NCBI GenBank assembly: GCA_020740485.1
Contig: DYMN01000006.1
Span: 1 to 64,000, forward strand
Direction of reading: 5' to 3'
From: Polaribacter sp.
GTDB taxonomy: Bacteria; Bacteroidota; Bacteroidia; Flavobacteriales; Flavobacteriaceae
DNA length: 64,000 nucleotides
Positions 50,507 through 57,345 of this stretch are shown here, piece by piece (position 1 is the first letter of the stretch; every line of letters begins with the position of its first letter). A model generated the notes under the pieces. That model had not been told where the DNA came from. It saw nothing but the letters and a program-made list of their open reading frames with translations, and ran no database searches. The translations under genes and the position numbers were made by a program.

Positions 50507-51106
50507 TTAAGGTTTAGATTCTTGAATTAATCGTGCTCCTGTATTTTTAAATAGGAATGAATTTTCTATCAATTGTTGATCTTTTTCATAGAGGTAATAT
50601 GTATCTGCAGCGCTAATAAACATAATACTATACACATTGGGATGAAGATAATAATAGTGAATTTTGAAAAATTGTTTTTTCGCTATATCTGAATTAAATG
50701 TGTTCGTATCATAATACAATAAATAATGATTTTCACTTTTTTTCAATAGTTTTTGATAATGATCGCTTTCTGTATTTATTTTGATTTTATTGTTGATGAA
50801 TTCTTCAAAATTTCCAACTATGCTGTCCTTATAAATGCAAAAATAAGTACTAGAATAAATCCCTGCCTTAGTTTTATCTCCAAAAGTCATTGATATATTA
50901 TCATTTGTTTCTTTAAAAGGTGCAACATAAACACTAGGATCATCAACTACTAATGGATCATCAATTATACGCCAATTTTTGGGATATTTAAAATTGAAAT
51001 CTTGGTTTTCGAAAATTTTAACTTAGGTTTGAAGTTCAGCATCCTTAACCGACCTTGGTGAAGTGCATGAAACCATTAGTAAGATTATAGGAATAAACTT
51101 GTGCAT
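50507..51106 (-). pseudogene. hypothetical lipoprotein gene interrupted by one in-frame TAA (51023-51025)
   Basis: Continuous frame MHKFIPIILLMVSCTSPRSVKDAELQT*VKIFENQDFNFKYPKNWRIIDDPLVVDDPSVYVAPFKETNDNISMTFGDK...; the downstream part is the 127-aa ORF 50507-50890. Confidence 0.75.
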
Positions 51107-51192: not shown

Positions 51193-52059
51193 TTATTTTA
51201 CACTTGGTTTACCCAGCGCATCCCATTCAGCATAAGCTCCTTCGTAATTTTTTACATTTTTGAATCCCATCATATTTACCAAATATGCATAAAGTGTTGC
51301 TCCTTTTACACCGGTTTTACAATAAACTAAATAAGTTTTTTCGGGATTTAATTCTATTCCCGCTAATTTTGTAAATTCTTCAGGTGAAATAAAAATATTT
51401 GTTTCTTTCTGAACCAAACTTTCATAAGGAATGTTAATAGCGCCTTCTATATGACCCTTGCTGTAAGTGTTTTTATCATCCAAAATGCCTTTAAATTCGT
51501 TTTCCGGACGTGCATCGATTATGATTACATCAGGATTTCCGATTGCAGATTCAACAAAAGCAGCATCGGCATAAACTTCAGGATTTAGATTTACAGTAAA
51601 AGTTTTAGCTTTTACTGTTGGGACAGCAGAAGTTAATTTGACGCGTGCATCACGGAAACCTGCATTTTCGCGATGTAATAATTTCACATCTTTTGCACCG
51701 AGATATTTCAAAATCCAATATACTCTGGTTGCATATTTTTGACTTCCTTCATCATATACCACGATGGTATCTTCATTTGAAACGCCTTTTGTGCCTATAA
51801 TTTTAGCAACTTCTTCTGTGGGAAGCAGAAGCCCTTCCACCTTGTTTTCTTTATCGTTTAAAATAGCATAAGGAATATTGATGGCGCCATCCACGTGGGT
51901 TTGAGCGTACAATTTATCCTTACTAGCGTCAATAACCACTATGGGTTTTTCTTTTTGAAGTGTAACAAAATCTTTGGCTGAAATAATTTCTTGTGCAAAA
52001 GATTTGCCAACAAATAACAAGGCGATGATTAATAATCCGAATATTTTTTTTGTGATCAT
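51193..52059 (-). CDS. exported sulfurtransferase with two rhodanese domains (3-mercaptopyruvate sulfurtransferase-like)
   Basis: Signal peptide MITKKIFGLLIIALLFVGKSFAQ; two rhodanese repeats; catalytic loop YLVYCKTGVKGATLYAYL. Confidence 0.9.
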   Translation of the reverse strand: MITKKIFGLLIIALLFVGKSFAQEIISAKDFVTLQKEKPIVVIDASKDKLYAQTHVDGAINIPYAILNDKENKVEGLLLPTEEVAKIIGTKGVSNEDTIVVYDEGSQKYATRVYWILKYLGAKDVKLLHRENAGFRDARVKLTSAVPTVKAKTFTVNLNPEVYADAAFVESAIGNPDVIIIDARPENEFKGILDDKNTYSKGHIEGAINIPYESLVQKETNIFISPEEFTKLAGIELNPEKTYLVYCKTGVKGATLYAYLVNMMGFKNVKNYEGAYAEWDALGKPSVK

Positions 52060-52092
52060 TTTAGTTTAGTTTATTAAGTTTATTTGAGAAGA

Positions 52093-52124
52093 GTGTGAGT
52101 AATATATTGCTACATTACTCACAC
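52093..52124. promoter_or_regulatory. 11-bp perfect-stem hairpin between porin and sulfurtransferase genes
   Basis: GTGTGAGTAAT-atattgctac-ATTACTCACAC. Confidence 0.6.
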
Positions 52125-52189
52125 AAAAACAATACCATTATTGAGTGTTTCTAAAAAAATAGCAAGTAGAAAACTATTTACAATCATGT

Positions 52190-53320
52190 TTATTTAATAA
52201 TGGCTTGTAGTTGAATTTGTAATACATCTTGATATGCTTGAGTAGGCAAGTATTTTGCTTCTTTTGTATTATATTGATAGTTAACTTGTAGTCTGGTCCA
52301 TTCGTTAAAATGGTAATTAAATCCTGCAGTCCATCTTAAGGCATGACTATTATCAACTGCAACATCATTCAATTTGTCAATACCATATGATTCATATTTG
52401 AATACAGGTTCGAATTTATCTTTAATTCTATAAAGAGCAGTTAAATAATAGCCGCTTCTTTCTGTAGAACCATCCACAACACTTACTGCTCCTCCGCAGC
52501 CACCACCAGTTGTATAGGAACCGTTATCTGTTCCAGAAATATATTCGCCTTGTAATATGAATTTTTTATATTTTACAGCTGCATCAAAGCCTAATCTGGT
52601 TCTACTGTCATCTTCTGTAGCTGTTGGAGAATCAGGTGTGAATTTACCGGTTTTATAGCTACCACCCAGAGTAAAATATTTACTGGGCGAAAAAGTTAAA
52701 CGAGCCACATACGTTTTTAAATTGTCAGACAGAGAATGAAATTCATAATCGTCGCCCATTACATCTCTTCCTTCACCGTTCATCAAGGCTAATTGATAAG
52801 TAAACACATCTTTAACCCCTTCAGAAATTTTTATTTTTTCACCTGTACTACCTGATAACATAAATCCCATATCGCGGATAGGTCCGGCTAATTCGTTTAC
52901 CACATCCGACCTATCAATAGTATAGAGTTTATGACAACCTTGCATTTGTTCTGCACCAAACGGAGCTTTAAATTGTCCAACTGCTGCTGTTAAAAATGGT
53001 TTGTATCTGTCGTAAGAAACATAAGCATCGCAAATTCCGAATCCGGCTGCAGGGGCATATTCCATGATAAAATAGTAAGAAAAATCATAAGGAATATTTC
53101 CCATCACACCCAAACGGGCACGGTTAAAGAAAAATCCACTTTGATCTAAATCGGGCGTGTGTTCTTTATTCATTCCTGTTATTGCGTATTCGTATTGTGG
53201 TTGAATAAAACCGAATATTTTTATGCCGTCTCCTTCGCCGGGACCTTCACAACCTTGTGAATAGGAAAATTGAAAAGCAATTGCAACAGCTAAAATTATT
53301 ATATATTTAATTGATTTCAT
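52190..53320 (-). CDS. porin (OprO/OprP-like outer membrane channel)
   Basis: Signal peptide; FGFIQPQYEYAITG, FFFNRARLGVMGNIPYDFSYYFIMEYA, AAVGQFKAPFGAEQMQG; C-terminal QLQAIIK. Confidence 0.82.
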   Translation of the reverse strand: MKSIKYIIILAVAIAFQFSYSQGCEGPGEGDGIKIFGFIQPQYEYAITGMNKEHTPDLDQSGFFFNRARLGVMGNIPYDFSYYFIMEYAPAAGFGICDAYVSYDRYKPFLTAAVGQFKAPFGAEQMQGCHKLYTIDRSDVVNELAGPIRDMGFMLSGSTGEKIKISEGVKDVFTYQLALMNGEGRDVMGDDYEFHSLSDNLKTYVARLTFSPSKYFTLGGSYKTGKFTPDSPTATEDDSRTRLGFDAAVKYKKFILQGEYISGTDNGSYTTGGGCGGAVSVVDGSTERSGYYLTALYRIKDKFEPVFKYESYGIDKLNDVAVDNSHALRWTAGFNYHFNEWTRLQVNYQYNTKEAKYLPTQAYQDVLQIQLQAIIK

Positions 53321-53387
53321 TTTTTGTGTATTTTAAATAAAGATATTATTGATATGATTATAGTCAGGTATTAGTTTCAAATATGTT

Positions 53388-54470
53388 TTAAGGAGCAACG
53401 TATATACCATCGGTGTTGGCGCCATCTGTTTTATAATACCCGTATCCTGAACCACTGTTATAAGAACTGGCACTGCCGGCACCGCCCCATGTGACAGCTT
53501 GTAAGTTTAATGGGTCGCCTGCAACATTTGGGCTTGCTAACATATCGGTGTGAATGATACCATTTGCACCAAATGATAAACTACGGGCGTTGTTGTAACC
53601 CAAAACTTGTAACCAAGTGGTAACAATTGACGATGTTTGTCCGGTATAACAATAGGTTAACACGTTACTTGCTTCAGGATTATAATGTTTTAGATTATCA
53701 AAAGTAATATCATTCATATTGTAAGCCCCGTTAATATGTCCAAAATGGTTGTATTGGGCTACAGTCCATTTATTGATAATTTGATAATTTGATGGGGTTG
53801 TCAATACATCTACTTTAGAAACATTCCAAGGCATTGCTAAAATTGCATTTAAACGAGCATTTAAAATTTCTTGACCGGTTGTTTTACCTGTGGATAAAGT
53901 AGGACTATCAAAATCTGTTAATGTCGGTGCAGCTGTAGTTACCCAATTAGTGGTAGCATACTGCGTTGCATTAGTAGTATTCCAAGAATTTGCAGCAGTA
54001 GTAAAAGCAGGATTCCAAGATGACATTCCCCATTTTAAAAATTTAGCATTGGGATAACCAGCCATTCTTAGAATAGTAGCAGCACGTGATGCAGTTTGAC
54101 CTGAAAAACAAACCACTAAAATTTTTGTTGTTTTTTCAGCCGGTGCAGCCGTTAGAATATTTGCCAATGGAATATTTTGAGCACCCTTGATATGTCCATT
54201 ATTGAATGTAGTAGCATCTCTAATATCTATAACTGTCCAACCCGGGATGCCATAATTATTGGTAGCATCAACGATACCACTATCAGTAGTAAGTTTTGCC
54301 GGTGTAACCAAACCGTTCGAAATAGTGTTGAAATCCAAGTTATTAGCAGTCATATAGTCAACGAGTACTGAGAACTCATCGGTTGACAATTCCTCATATT
54401 TTCGGCAACTTGTGGTAACAAATAACGGTATTATTACCGCTAATAATAAAATTGAAATTATTTTTCTCAT
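53388..54470 (-). CDS. rhodanese-domain lipoprotein (two domains)
   Basis: Lipobox TTSC; TVIDIRDATTFNNGHIKGAQNIPL with ILVVCFSGQTASRAA; second domain HINGAYNM with VLTYCYTGQTSSIVTTWLQVLGY. Confidence 0.88.
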   Translation of the reverse strand: MRKIISILLLAVIIPLFVTTSCRKYEELSTDEFSVLVDYMTANNLDFNTISNGLVTPAKLTTDSGIVDATNNYGIPGWTVIDIRDATTFNNGHIKGAQNIPLANILTAAPAEKTTKILVVCFSGQTASRAATILRMAGYPNAKFLKWGMSSWNPAFTTAANSWNTTNATQYATTNWVTTAAPTLTDFDSPTLSTGKTTGQEILNARLNAILAMPWNVSKVDVLTTPSNYQIINKWTVAQYNHFGHINGAYNMNDITFDNLKHYNPEASNVLTYCYTGQTSSIVTTWLQVLGYNNARSLSFGANGIIHTDMLASPNVAGDPLNLQAVTWGGAGSASSYNSGSGYGYYKTDGANTDGIYVAP

Positions 54471-54623
54471 GATGATTAAAAATTTAATTAATTGTTAATG
54501 TATTCTACTTTGCTTTGGAAATAATGAAATATTTAGAACTATTTCCGTGTACAAATTTCCGATTTATCAAAATAAAGCTCAATTTTTTGGATATGTATTA
54601 AAACAACTTTATTATTACATCCT

Positions 54624-54657
54624 ATCAACTTTTTAATTGATAAAAATCAACTTTTTA
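54624..54657. promoter_or_regulatory. FNR-type box TTGATAAAAATCAA (54637-54650) within a 12-nt direct repeat ATCAACTTTTTA
   Basis: Perfect TTGAT-N4-ATCAA; ATCAACTTTTTA occurs at 54624 and 54646, 22 bp apart, in the divergent intergenic region. Confidence 0.7.
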
Positions 54658-54687
54658 TTGTAAATTTGTAACCCAAATACTAGTTAT

Positions 54688-55365
54688 ATGTTAGATTGTT
54701 TAAAAGATATTCAACATCAAGAATCTTTTAATTTACTGAATAATAGCGAATTAGATGTCTTAAACCAAAATAAGATTACAGTCCATTACAAAAAAAATGA
54801 TACCATTGTCAAGCAAGGCACCTTTGTAAACAATATCTTTTTTAGTCAAAGCGGTTTGTTTAAATTGCACGTAGAAGGCAACCAAAAGAATATAATTCTG
54901 ACTTTTAAAGGAAGTAAGGTGTTTTTGGGAATTTCGAGTATTTACCATTCCACGGGGATGCATTTGTACTCCGTAACGGCGCTGGAAGATTGCATTGTGG
55001 ATATGTATGATATGTCAGCGTTTAAGCAAGTACTTCAAACTAATGTGGCATTTGCCAATGAGATTCTAAAGTATGTCAATCACAATTCCGGTAGAATTTT
55101 CCGTCGTTTTATTAATATGACTGAAAAAAATGCACGCGGGAAAGTGGCAAATATGATATTATGTCTTTCCAATAGTGTTTACTTCAGTCCTGAATATACC
55201 TTAAATATTACAAGAAAGGAAATGGCAGATTTTTTAGGGATTTCTATGGAAAATATTGTGCGTATTCTCAAAGAATTTAAAAATGACGGATTGGTAATAG
55301 TGGAAGGGAAGCGAATTCAGATAATTAATGCTGATTCTTTAATTAAGGTATATGATTTCGGGTGA
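54688..55365 (+). CDS. Crp/Fnr family transcriptional regulator
   Basis: cNMP-binding fold (VHYKKNDTIVKQGTFVNNIFFSQSGLFKL) and HTH (LNITRKEMADFLGISMENIVRILKEFKNDGLV). Confidence 0.92.
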   Translation: MLDCLKDIQHQESFNLLNNSELDVLNQNKITVHYKKNDTIVKQGTFVNNIFFSQSGLFKLHVEGNQKNIILTFKGSKVFLGISSIYHSTGMHLYSVTALEDCIVDMYDMSAFKQVLQTNVAFANEILKYVNHNSGRIFRRFINMTEKNARGKVANMILCLSNSVYFSPEYTLNITRKEMADFLGISMENIVRILKEFKNDGLVIVEGKRIQIINADSLIKVYDFG

Positions 55366-55377
55366 TTCGGACTTAAA

Positions 55378-55410
55378 GTAAGGGTTTGACTAACAGTCAA
55401 GCCCTTACTC
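55378..55410. terminator. bidirectional hairpin between convergent genes
   Basis: AGTAAGGGTTTGACTaacAGTCAAGCCCTTACT. Confidence 0.7.
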
Positions 55411-55427
55411 TTCCAACCCATACTCTG

Positions 55428-57206
55428 TTAAGGAATGATACATTTTTTGGTTCTGTTTTTCAGCATTTTTTGGTATTCTCCTTCAACCATTCTGTTTAAA
55501 AAAGCCTTATCTTTTCCGTGACATTCAATACAAGCCCCTACTTGCAGCATCTTTTTTTGGTCTTTTAAATCCAAAGGTTTTAGATAATCGTGTGCAGAAT
55601 AGGTTTTTTTTGGATTTACATCTTTTAAAAATCCGATCCAAGCATCTTGTGGCAATCCGTCCTGTGGCGCATCGGCGTAATAGGAATCAAATTTCCATTG
55701 AGCTTTGCTGTTTTTAACTTCATAGATTAATTTGCCACGTCCAAAACCCAGTGCTTGCGGATTATTGTGGCAGGAGGCACAGTCTCGAACTTCTTTTGTA
55801 GTAGTATGGGCAGCATTGGGTGCATACCAGCGGATAAATTTTTCAACAAACTTTTTGTTTTCATCAGGAAATTTTGAGGCATCCAAGGTCATGATCATAC
55901 CCGGAATGGTAGGCACGTATTCTTTGGTTTTACCGGCGGCACTAACTCCTATCGTAGGTGGCAAGTAACCAAATTCGGCGATGTGTTCTACCCAACGTCC
56001 TTTAATTTGGTCCTTATTAGTTAAAGTTGGATCAAAATCGGTATGACAACCTATACAAGTGGGAGACCAAGCTGTGTGACACATACTGCAAGAAAGGCTA
56101 TTATGCACTTCATCTCGTTTACAAGCTGAGGATATTTTGAATTCTTTTTTTGATATTTTGGAGGTGAGATATCCGTTTCCTTCTTTATCAACTCTGGTAT
56201 TAACTAATGGTATATTATTTTTTTCTGTAACAACAAATGAATAATGAGGATTCTTATAGCCACGCAACGCATAATCTTTTACAGAAATATAATCCATTTT
56301 AGCAGTCTTTTTCTGAAATTTTCCTTGGGGATGACAATCTTTACATTGAATCTTTACGGCTTGCGCTTCGTGTTTATACAAGGTGCCATCACCCATAATT
56401 TCTTGTGAGGTATGGCAATCTATACATTGCATTCCTAAGGTATGGTGTACATCAGGCGTTGTTTTTTCAAAGATACGTCCATCCATCAATTCGCGATACC
56501 CTTTTTTACCTTTTACATCTTCCGACGTGTAAAGGGTTTCGCTCCAACCCTCGTAATTGGTAGATATTCTACCGGAACGGCTGTGGCATCCGAAACACTT
56601 GTCATTGCCAACATTGAGATTGATTTGCGGGTGTATGTTGTCGTGAATATTGGGTTTAGCCCCATTTTCATAGTTTAAATGGCACGCCAAACATCCACCG
56701 CCACGTGTAAGCTCTGTAACTTCTGCATACTGTTTTTTTTCATTGCCCAAATGACAAGTTCCACATTTGTTTTTCAAATGCACGTCTGCTGCCGTATGTT
56801 TCAAATGGGCTATATAAAAAAGTGAATCGGTGTGATGCACTTCTTCAAAGAGAAACTTATCCACGCTTACAATTCCACTGTTAGTGGTCATCAGCGATTT
56901 GCTGATTCTTTCATATTCATTGGCGTGGCACTGTGCTGTGGCACAAGTTTGTTGGGCATTTTGCAAGTTACCGGGAATGAGAATCATGCCTTTGTGCGCT
57001 TCGTCTTTATCGCTAGATTTTGTGTTTCCCAAATGACAAGCAGCACAACCTATGGTCTTTGGGTCGTGATATTTACTGAAACCACTCATTTCTGCATGAC
57101 AAGAGGTGCATGACTCACCTTGAGCCATAGCTGTGTAATCTCCTTTATTTTTTTTACAACTCGAGAGAATAATTAGTAGCAGTAATATGTAGTAAGTGGA
57201 TTTCAA
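55428..57206 (-). CDS. multiheme c-type cytochrome lipoprotein (12 candidate haem motifs), TTG start
   Basis: Eleven CxxCH motifs plus one CATAQCH (CX4CH); lipobox ILSSC; only a TTG start is available before an in-frame TAG in the adjacent tandem repeat. Confidence 0.85.
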   Translation of the reverse strand: MKSTYYILLLLIILSSCKKNKGDYTAMAQGESCTSCHAEMSGFSKYHDPKTIGCAACHLGNTKSSDKDEAHKGMILIPGNLQNAQQTCATAQCHANEYERISKSLMTTNSGIVSVDKFLFEEVHHTDSLFYIAHLKHTAADVHLKNKCGTCHLGNEKKQYAEVTELTRGGGCLACHLNYENGAKPNIHDNIHPQINLNVGNDKCFGCHSRSGRISTNYEGWSETLYTSEDVKGKKGYRELMDGRIFEKTTPDVHHTLGMQCIDCHTSQEIMGDGTLYKHEAQAVKIQCKDCHPQGKFQKKTAKMDYISVKDYALRGYKNPHYSFVVTEKNNIPLVNTRVDKEGNGYLTSKISKKEFKISSACKRDEVHNSLSCSMCHTAWSPTCIGCHTDFDPTLTNKDQIKGRWVEHIAEFGYLPPTIGVSAAGKTKEYVPTIPGMIMTLDASKFPDENKKFVEKFIRWYAPNAAHTTTKEVRDCASCHNNPQALGFGRGKLIYEVKNSKAQWKFDSYYADAPQDGLPQDAWIGFLKDVNPKKTYSAHDYLKPLDLKDQKKMLQVGACIECHGKDKAFLNRMVEGEYQKMLKNRTKKCIIP

Positions 57207-57217
57207 ATTTTGATGAA

Positions 57218-57343
57218 GTTGATGCTGTTGATACTATTGATGCTGTTGATGCTGTTGATGCTGTTGATGCTGTTGATACTATTGATGCTGTTGATGCTGT
57301 TGATGCTATTGATGCTATTGATACTGTTGATACTATTGATACT
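57218..57343. repeat. 14 x 9-bp tandem repeat (RTTGATRCT) with 45-bp higher-order period
   Basis: Fourteen consecutive 9-mers differing only by A/G at two positions; 57218-57262 and 57263-57307 are identical 45-mers. Confidence 0.95.
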
Positions 57344-57345
57344 GC

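What the first reader, a model, noticed from the sequence alone, without database searches (positions are those of the whole stretch)
51193..57206. Putative redox-controlled exported sulfur-transfer system: rhodaneses + porin + multiheme cytochrome + Crp/Fnr regulator
Seen: same-strand genes for a double-rhodanese lipoprotein, a porin and an exported mercaptopyruvate-sulfurtransferase-like protein, a divergent Crp/Fnr regulator, and a 12-motif c-type cytochrome lipoprotein next door. All effectors carry export signals, so sulfur/sulfane handling would be extracytoplasmic. Both domains of the lipoprotein keep an apparent active Cys (VVCFSGQT, TYCYTGQT). Inference: uptake through the porin, persulfide relay by rhodaneses, and electron exchange by the cytochrome, switched on by low oxygen or a sulfur signal. 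I know of no named pathway with exactly this set.
Basis: partly seen in the sequence, partly recalled or inferred. Interest (0 to 1): 0.72.

Follow-up and report, generated by a model that had tools for sequence, protein, structure and literature searches.

The report
Exported sulfur-relay module for anaerobic respiration
A bacterium related to Flavobacterium carries a conserved set of exported sulfur-carrying proteins, a matching outer-membrane channel and a many-haem electron carrier that in related bacteria sit beside a sulfur-breathing enzyme, suggesting an undescribed way for these common bacteria to respire sulfur compounds outside the cytoplasm.

Summary
The genes are real and were described nearly correctly. 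The set is not peculiar to this genome. The double-rhodanese lipoprotein (RHODLP), a Porin_O_P-type porin and an exported MPST-like rhodanese form a module that recurs across Bacteroidota and other phyla, next to respiratory redox genes: octahaem tetrathionate-reductase-family cytochromes, decahaem cytochromes, or a Psr/Phs-type molybdoenzyme operon with YeeE/YedE sulfur-transport genes and two more rhodaneses. The window cytochrome is ExtM-like. In 15 of 16 family-level genomes holding both, it sits divergently beside that Psr/Phs operon; in this genome the operon lies on another contig (C38). One relative (L228) has everything in one locus. A perfect FNR-type operator lies between the Crp/Fnr gene and RHODLP, but the regulator lacks the four-cysteine oxygen sensor. 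The porin family has three invariant cysteines; one aligns to a phosphate-binding serine of OprP. Best reading: an extracytoplasmic sulfane-sulfur relay feeding a Psr/Phs-type reductase (sulfur, polysulfide or thiosulfate respiration). The closest named system is Geobacter extHI...M (selenite/tellurite), but the homologues fall well below its orthologue cut-offs. Substrate, direction and the porin cysteine's role are untested. New variant of a known kind.

The parts
53388..54470 (-). RHODLP: exported tandem rhodanese lipoprotein with two active-site cysteines (C121 in CFSGQT, C274 in CYTGQT); first gene of the RHODLP-porin-MPST-like run
   Evidence: AlphaFold2 pLDDT 86.8 and best Foldseek matches all rhodanese proteins
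52190..53320 (-). Porin_O_P-family outer-membrane porin, predicted 16-stranded barrel, family-specific invariant Cys24, Cys129, Cys275
51193..52059 (-). Exported mercaptopyruvate/thiosulfate sulfurtransferase-like protein; cysteine loop (CKTGVKG) only in the C-terminal domain
54637..54650 (.). Perfect FNR-type operator TTGATAAAAATCAA in the divergent promoter region (37 bp before the Crp/Fnr start codon); it lies in an imperfect 22-bp two-copy repeat
54688..55365 (+). Crp/Fnr-family regulator, divergent from RHODLP, without an FNR four-cysteine cluster
55428..57206 (-). Multihaem c-type cytochrome lipoprotein, 11 CXXCH + 1 CX4CH, ExtM-like (202.6 bits, E 8.7e-60, below the equivalog cut-off of 800)

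Best explanation
The window genes are the outer-membrane and periplasmic half of a sulfur-respiration system whose catalytic half is encoded elsewhere in the same genome (contig C38: PsrA/PhsA-like molybdoenzyme, Fe-S subunit, NrfD-type membrane subunit, two half-size YeeE/YedE proteins, two membrane-anchored or exported single-domain rhodaneses). Proposed steps: (1) a sulfane-containing anion (polysulfide, thiosulfate or tetrathionate) crosses the outer membrane through the porin; (2) the lipid-anchored tandem rhodanese and the MPST-like rhodanese take sulfane sulfur as cysteine persulfide and pass it on; (3) the Psr/Phs-type enzyme reduces it to sulfide with quinol electrons through the NrfD subunit, while the dodecahaem ExtM-like cytochrome carries electrons to or from the envelope; (4) the Crp/Fnr regulator controls its own gene and the divergent rhodanese-porin genes through the TTGAT-N4-ATCAA site. 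Shown: gene content, domains, active-site conservation, operator conservation, genomic linkage and co-occurrence. Inferred: every transfer step, the substrate, the reductive direction, and the signal.
For: Co-occurrence in the same 200 family-level genomes: RHODLP in 11, ExtM-like cytochrome in 18, PsrA/PhsA-like in 17; all 11 RHODLP genomes hold both others (p 8e-14, 3e-14); cytochrome and PsrA-like together in 16 (p 1.5e-20). In 15 of those 16 the two genes are divergent neighbours, and in 7 of the relatives RHODLP is in the same locus. L228, another family of the class, has Crp-RHODLP-porin-MPST-cytochrome-PsrABC-YeeE-YeeE-rhodanese-rhodanese in one locus with an SQR-type-III-like gene. Own-genome operon on C38: best solved relative of its catalytic subunit is the Thermus enzyme 2vpw, E 1.2e-177, next 7e-47. 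Elsewhere the module is joined to TIGR04315 octahaem cytochromes (564 bits, cut-off 375), a thiosulfate-reductase-like cytochrome b, YeeE/YedE and TusA. Operator: 5 of 23 divergent Crp regions perfect, 0.065 expected; 0 of 103 other divergent regions in the same loci.
Against: No substrate evidence. The PsrA-like protein scores below NCBIfam's PhsA cut-off (465 against 694), so polysulfide versus thiosulfate is open and another substrate possible. Five genomes have cytochrome and Psr operon without RHODLP at the threshold used, so the relay is not obligatory. In Ignavibacteria-like genomes RHODLP travels with a decahaem cytochrome and mostly without Psr operon or porin. OTR-family cytochromes also reduce nitrogen compounds in vitro (general knowledge). 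For Lutibacter sp. B1, which carries the full set (L047), the passages of the source paper that I searched report fermentation and no sulfur respiration (PMC11129491). The p-values ignore shared ancestry among genomes.
Confidence: 0.6

Rival explanations
1. Oxidative or detoxifying use: the system handles sulfide-derived polysulfide (from SQR) or runs the Psr-like enzyme and cytochrome towards sulfur oxidation or disproportionation at oxic-anoxic interfaces.
For: L228 has an SQR-III-like gene and a TauE-type exporter in the same locus; multihaem cytochromes could serve either direction; L068 carries TusA and YeeE next to FlpD- and HdrA-like genes.
Against: No SQR-like hit in the window genome with that query (the genome is 84.6% complete and the search had no positive control). 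The Psr/Phs family is known as reductases. The FNR-type operator fits anaerobic control better.
Confidence: 0.15
2. Chalcogen-oxyanion or metal reduction as in the Geobacter ext cluster: rhodanese, porin and dodecahaem cytochrome reduce selenite/tellurite or pass electrons to extracellular acceptors.
For: ExtH, ExtI and ExtM models match (E 1.6e-13, 1.1e-12, 8.7e-60); L226 has an ExtP-like cytochrome b fused to an ExtM-like cytochrome; deletion of extI impairs selenite/tellurite conversion (PMC5877670); in Ignavibacteria-like loci RHODLP lies beside 14-haem cytochrome clusters.
Against: All three scores are far below the equivalog cut-offs (50.4/200, 47.5/150, 202.6/800). Linkage is to sulfur genes. 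The ext assignment rests on an extI mutant and may itself reflect a sulfur role.
Confidence: 0.13
3. Sulfur acquisition for assimilation: porin, rhodaneses and YeeE/YedE import thiosulfate or sulfane sulfur for biosynthesis rather than respiration.
For: YeeE/YedE halves match Pfam Sulf_transp and, weakly, TsuA models.
Against: Multihaem cytochrome, NrfD membrane subunit and Psr/Phs molybdoenzyme are respiratory parts and are the most tightly co-occurring ones.
Confidence: 0.07
4. The cytochrome and the rhodanese-porin genes are unrelated neighbours; only the latter form a module.
For: The cytochrome is separated by the oppositely oriented Crp gene, and 7 of the 18 cytochrome-bearing genomes lack RHODLP.
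Against: Every RHODLP genome in the family sample has the cytochrome (11/11); the close relative L042 has the same order; L226 and L228, from other families, also pair them.
Confidence: 0.05

Closest known systems
Geobacter extHIJKLMNOPQS cluster (selenite/tellurite reduction; ExtH rhodanese lipoprotein, ExtI porin, ExtM 12-haem cytochrome)
   Same: Exported rhodanese, Porin_O/P-related porin and dodecahaem cytochrome in one neighbourhood; detectable homology to ExtH, ExtI and ExtM; a divergent regulator gene
   Different: Scores 25-32% of the equivalog cut-offs; Crp/Fnr instead of LysR regulator (PMC6148476); RHODLP itself does not match ExtH; linked to Psr/Phs, YeeE/YedE and OTR genes
Psr/Phs polysulfide and thiosulfate reductases (Wolinella, Thermus, Salmonella), including the Wolinella periplasmic rhodanese Sud as polysulfide carrier (general knowledge)
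   Same: Own-genome C38 operon has catalytic, Fe-S and NrfD-type subunits, best solved match 2vpw; a periplasmic rhodanese relay is the mechanism proposed here
   Different: Four rhodanese genes, a dedicated porin, half-size YeeE/YedE pair and a dodecahaem cytochrome; below the PhsA cut-off
OprP/OprO phosphate/diphosphate porins
   Same: Porin_O_P over the Pfam cut-off, 16 strands, best fold match 2o4v
   Different: OprP K121, S125 and K126 replaced; invariant Cys at the S125 position and two further invariant Cys
Octahaem tetrathionate reductase (TIGR04315) clusters with rhodaneses, as noted in Dethiobacter (PMC10376724)
   Same: In many relatives the RHODLP-porin-MPST run follows an octahaem cytochrome and cytochrome b
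   Different: No octahaem gene in the window; own-genome search found none, but its control did not ring
MOLY/YTD sulfur-disproportionation clusters (PMC12998232)
   Same: Molybdoenzyme and YedE/TusA themes
   Different: MOLY has a TorD-like chaperone and no membrane anchor; YTD has YedE, TusA, DsrE and conserved hypothetical proteins; porin and multihaem cytochrome are not among the components the paper lists

Membership tests
Geobacter ext selenite/tellurite cluster | ExtM, ExtI, ExtH equivalog scores over NCBIfam cut-offs | tested here: not met
   202.6/800, 47.5/150, 50.4/200
Geobacter ext selenite/tellurite cluster | Rhodanese, porin and 12-haem cytochrome together | tested here: met
Geobacter ext selenite/tellurite cluster | ExtKL selenoprotein cytochrome and ExtNOPQS in the cluster | tested here: inconclusive
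   No such neighbours in the ORF list or among the ORFs scanned; rest of genome not searched for them
Psr/Phs reductase (own-genome operon on C38) | Molybdopterin catalytic subunit closest to PsrA/PhsA | tested here: met
   2vpw E 1.2e-177; PhsA model is the best NCBIfam hit, 465 bits, below its cut-off of 694
Psr/Phs reductase (own-genome operon on C38) | 4Fe-4S subunit and NrfD-type membrane subunit in the operon | tested here: met
   homologues identified by Pfam
Psr/Phs reductase (own-genome operon on C38) | Reduction of polysulfide or thiosulfate | not testable with these tools
   needs enzyme assay
Porin_O_P | Pfam PF07396 over gathering cut-off | tested here: met
   56.4 bits against 20.9
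OprP-type phosphate porin | Central phosphate-binding K121, S125, K126 | tested here: not met
   HMMER alignment to 2o4v and family alignment
FNR oxygen sensor | Four cysteines ligating a [4Fe-4S] cluster | tested here: not met
   Window protein has one N-terminal Cys (C4); relatives have two or three
FNR/Crp regulator | TTGAT-N4-ATCAA operator in the controlled promoter | tested here: met
Active rhodanese | Active-site cysteine in the loop | tested here: met
   C121 and C274 each at least 90% conserved
Octahaem tetrathionate reductase | TIGR04315 gene in this genome | tested here: inconclusive
   No hit, but control genomes did not ring either

The most novel reading that the evidence does not exclude
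The porin is the founding member of a sulfane-selective outer-membrane channel family: an invariant cysteine has replaced a central anion-binding serine of OprP at the constriction, so that polysulfide or thiosulfate is bound, perhaps as a transient persulfide or by a redox-gated disulfide with Cys24 or Cys275, and handed to lipid-anchored tandem rhodaneses. Together with the Psr/Phs-type enzyme and the dodecahaem cytochrome it forms a dedicated sulfur-uptake and respiration system of Bacteroidota and neighbouring phyla.
Probability: 0.15. Interest if true: 0.8.

Novelty: new variant of a known kind. Interest (0 to 1): 0.58.

Why it matters
Flavobacteria and their relatives are abundant in marine and sediment habitats and are mostly treated as aerobes or fermenters. 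A conserved exported sulfur-respiration module would give many of them a place in the sulfur cycle and a marker for it. How sulfane compounds cross the outer membrane is unresolved (PMC10045233 says no such membrane protein has been experimentally confirmed in sulfur oxidisers); a cysteine-bearing porin genetically tied to rhodaneses and a sulfur reductase makes that question directly testable. It also suggests that the Geobacter ext rhodanese-porin genes, known from selenite/tellurite and metal work, may belong to a wider sulfur-handling kind.

Tried and rejected
Chance or one-genome neighbourhood: rejected. Straight membership of the ext cluster: rejected on cut-offs. Classical oxygen-sensing FNR: rejected on cysteines. 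Octahaem reductase in this genome: not found, inconclusive. SQR-like gene in this genome: not found with one query, no positive control. FNR box upstream of the own Psr operon: only 8 of 10 positions, no better than most other upstream regions, so co-regulation of the two contigs is not shown. Plasmid carriage of RHODLP: no match in PLSDB. PDB relatives of the cytochrome: none. Whole-genome haem-motif count: list truncated, not informative beyond 96/85 matches against 40/40 control. The large genes next to RHODLP in L192/L197/L212, first taken for molybdoenzymes by length, do not look like it from their N-termini and were not scanned. Literature searches with the expected gene combinations found no description of this module; the library lacks most subscription journals.
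Full report
OBSERVATION. reproduces the five ORFs at the stated coordinates; one search gives the domains: rhodanese pairs in 51193-52059 and 53388-54470, Porin_O_P in 52190-53320, cNMP_binding + HTH_Crp_2 in 54688-55365, cytochrome c3/c7-type in 55428-57206. The cytochrome has 11 CXXCH and one CX4CH. RHODLP has CFSGQT and CYTGQT loops at 121 and 274. Across 36 relatives the first loop cysteine is lost in one and the second in three.

WHAT THE GENES RESEMBLE. NCBIfam places the cytochrome nearest ExtM (E 8.7e-60), the porin nearest ExtI (1.1e-12), and matches the MPST-like protein weakly to ExtH (1.6e-13), all below the equivalog cut-offs. In Geobacter these belong to extHIJKLMNOPQS: rhodanese, porin, small protein, selenoprotein cytochrome, 12-haem ExtM and a cytochrome b/Rieske pair. 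Deletion of extI impairs conversion of selenite and tellurite (PMC5877670). Otero and colleagues describe ExtH as a rhodanese-family lipoprotein that is often replaced by other rhodaneses (PMC6148476).

NEIGHBOURHOOD. A scan of named genomes with RHODLP gave 59 loci. Of 58 with a usable RHODLP, 24 have the porin next to it on the same strand and 15 have RHODLP-porin-MPST in order. The record titles of these include Bacteroidota, Chlorobiota, Calditrichota, Cloacimonadota, Eisenbacteria and Armatimonadetes. L042, a Flavobacteriia MAG with 76% identical RHODLP, repeats the whole window order. In many Bacteroidales-type loci the run is preceded by a divergent Crp gene, a TIGR04315 octahaem cytochrome (564 bits, cut-off 375), a thiosulfate-reductase-like cytochrome b and a single-domain rhodanese lipoprotein. 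In others it is preceded by full-length YeeE/YedE, once with TusA. In an even sample of 397 genomes of the phylum, 31 have RHODLP; in 26 of 28 loci examined it is paired with a decahaem cytochrome.

THE MISSING HALF. In Lutibacter sp. B1 (L047) and relatives the ExtM-like cytochrome is divergent from a Psr/Phs-type operon: molybdopterin subunit, 4Fe-4S subunit, NrfD subunit, two half-size Sulf_transp (YeeE/YedE) proteins, two rhodaneses. RHODLP, RHODLP and porin follow it. The window genome has the same operon on contig C38 (L101_15 to L101_9; the proteins are 31-80% identical to those of relatives, catalytic subunit 65%), not next to the cytochrome. Its catalytic subunit has Thermus 2vpw as by far the best solved relative. 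Across the same 200 family-level genomes RHODLP, the cytochrome and the catalytic subunit occur in 11, 18 and 17; the overlaps are 11 (RHODLP-cytochrome), 11 (RHODLP-catalytic) and 16 (cytochrome-catalytic); hypergeometric p 8e-14, 3e-14 and 1.5e-20, not corrected for phylogeny. The coordinates show cytochrome and catalytic subunit as divergent neighbours in 15 of the 16 genomes with both; the window genome is the exception. L228 (a different family of the class) has Crp, RHODLP, porin, MPST, cytochrome and the full Psr-YeeE-rhodanese operon in one locus, with an SQR-III-like gene, a TauE-type gene and another rhodanese upstream. In L226 an ExtP-like cytochrome b is fused to the ExtM-like cytochrome, which suggests that this cytochrome can take quinol electrons.

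REGULATION. TTGATAAAAATCAA at 54637-54650 is the only perfect FNR-type site in the window; alone that is weak, since 24 of 100 shuffles have one. The comparative result is stronger: 5 of 23 divergent Crp regions have a perfect site against 0.065 expected, 10 have at least 9 of 10 positions against 0.9 expected, and 0 of 103 other divergent regions in the same loci have a perfect site (8 have 9 or more). In the perfect cases the site lies about 37-57 bp from the Crp start. The site sits in a 22-bp two-copy repeat. The window regulator has lost the N-terminal cysteines its relatives keep in part, so oxygen sensing by an iron-sulfur cluster is unlikely, and the signal is unknown. No good site precedes the own Psr operon, so co-regulation with the window genes is not shown.

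THE PORIN. AlphaFold2 gives a 16-stranded barrel (pLDDT 77) whose best fold match is OprP. Three cysteines, 24, 129 and 275, are invariant in 28 of 28 sequences and in three further members, and are usually the only ones; related Porin_O_P proteins outside the family lack them, apart from one stray alignment of a cysteine to position 129. In the HMMER alignment to OprP, Cys129 falls on S125, K121 and K126 are replaced, and R137 falls on R133. PMC5877670 lists D94, Y62, S124, S125, K121, K126, R34 and R133 as OprP's phosphate-binding residues. The alignment is at low identity and the model coordinates could not be inspected, so the position of Cys129 in the constriction and any disulfide are inferences.

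LOCATION. RHODLP has a lipobox-like TTSC. After the cysteine, 4 of 28 relatives with a scored lipobox match the optimal Bacteroidetes surface-export signal C-X-K-(D/E)2 exactly and 21, including the window (CRKYEE), fit a loose version of my own (PMC5080379). Surface exposure is plausible but not shown. The first of the two tandem RHODLP copies in several Flavobacteriaceae lacks the lipid cysteine.

MECHANISM AND RIVALS. The best reading is a sulfane relay from porin to exported rhodaneses to a Psr/Phs-type reductase, with the dodecahaem cytochrome as electron carrier. The linked gene families (octahaem tetrathionate-reductase family, thiosulfate-reductase-like cytochrome b, YeeE/YedE, TusA, SQR-like) agree on sulfur and not on one substrate. 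The main rivals are oxidative use or disproportionation, and an ext-like role in selenite/tellurite or metal reduction. Lutibacter sp. B1 carries the full set, but in the passages I searched it is reported as a fermenter with no statement of sulfur respiration; this is neither support nor refutation.

EVOLUTION. In the porin tree the window and L042 group with a Cytophagales sequence (96/93) and not with the other Flavobacteriaceae porins, which form their own supported clade. The RHODLP-porin-MPST module of this genome may therefore have a different history from that of its family relatives. This was not tested further.

NOVELTY. Each part has known relatives; the recurring assembly, its spread and the cysteine-bearing porin were not found in the papers searched. 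New variant of a known kind.

Noticed in passing
57210-57344: A 9-bp tandem repeat (TTGATGCTG, 15 copies) fills the space just upstream of the cytochrome start.
   Followed up: no
L228:2617-19901: All-in-one locus in another family of the class: TauE-type exporter, rhodanese, SQR-III-like, Crp, RHODLP-porin-MPST, dodecahaem cytochrome and Psr-YeeE-YeeE-rhodanese-rhodanese operon.
   Followed up: partly
L226:4167-6845: ExtP-like cytochrome b fused to an ExtM-like multihaem cytochrome in one 892-residue protein.
   Followed up: partly
L049:10001-11863 and L054 (622-aa ORF upstream of the porin): RHODLP homologues of about 620 residues, roughly twice the usual length, possibly four rhodanese domains.
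   Followed up: no
L182-L188, L201, L203, L205, L206: Ignavibacteria-like genomes often place RHODLP and a decahaem cytochrome next to a 14-haem cytochrome, a protein of about 425 residues without a Pfam match, and a small tetrahaem protein, resembling extracellular electron-transfer clusters.
   Followed up: no
L192:7546-13155: Five RHODLP-like paralogues in a row in a context unlike the respiratory ones.
   Followed up: no
window 52190-53320 against L030-L047 porins: The window porin does not group with those of its own family but with a Cytophagales sequence, hinting at module exchange.
   Followed up: partly
50507-50890: Short ORF (127 aa, minus strand) downstream of the MPST-like gene with no Pfam or NCBIfam match.
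   Followed up: no
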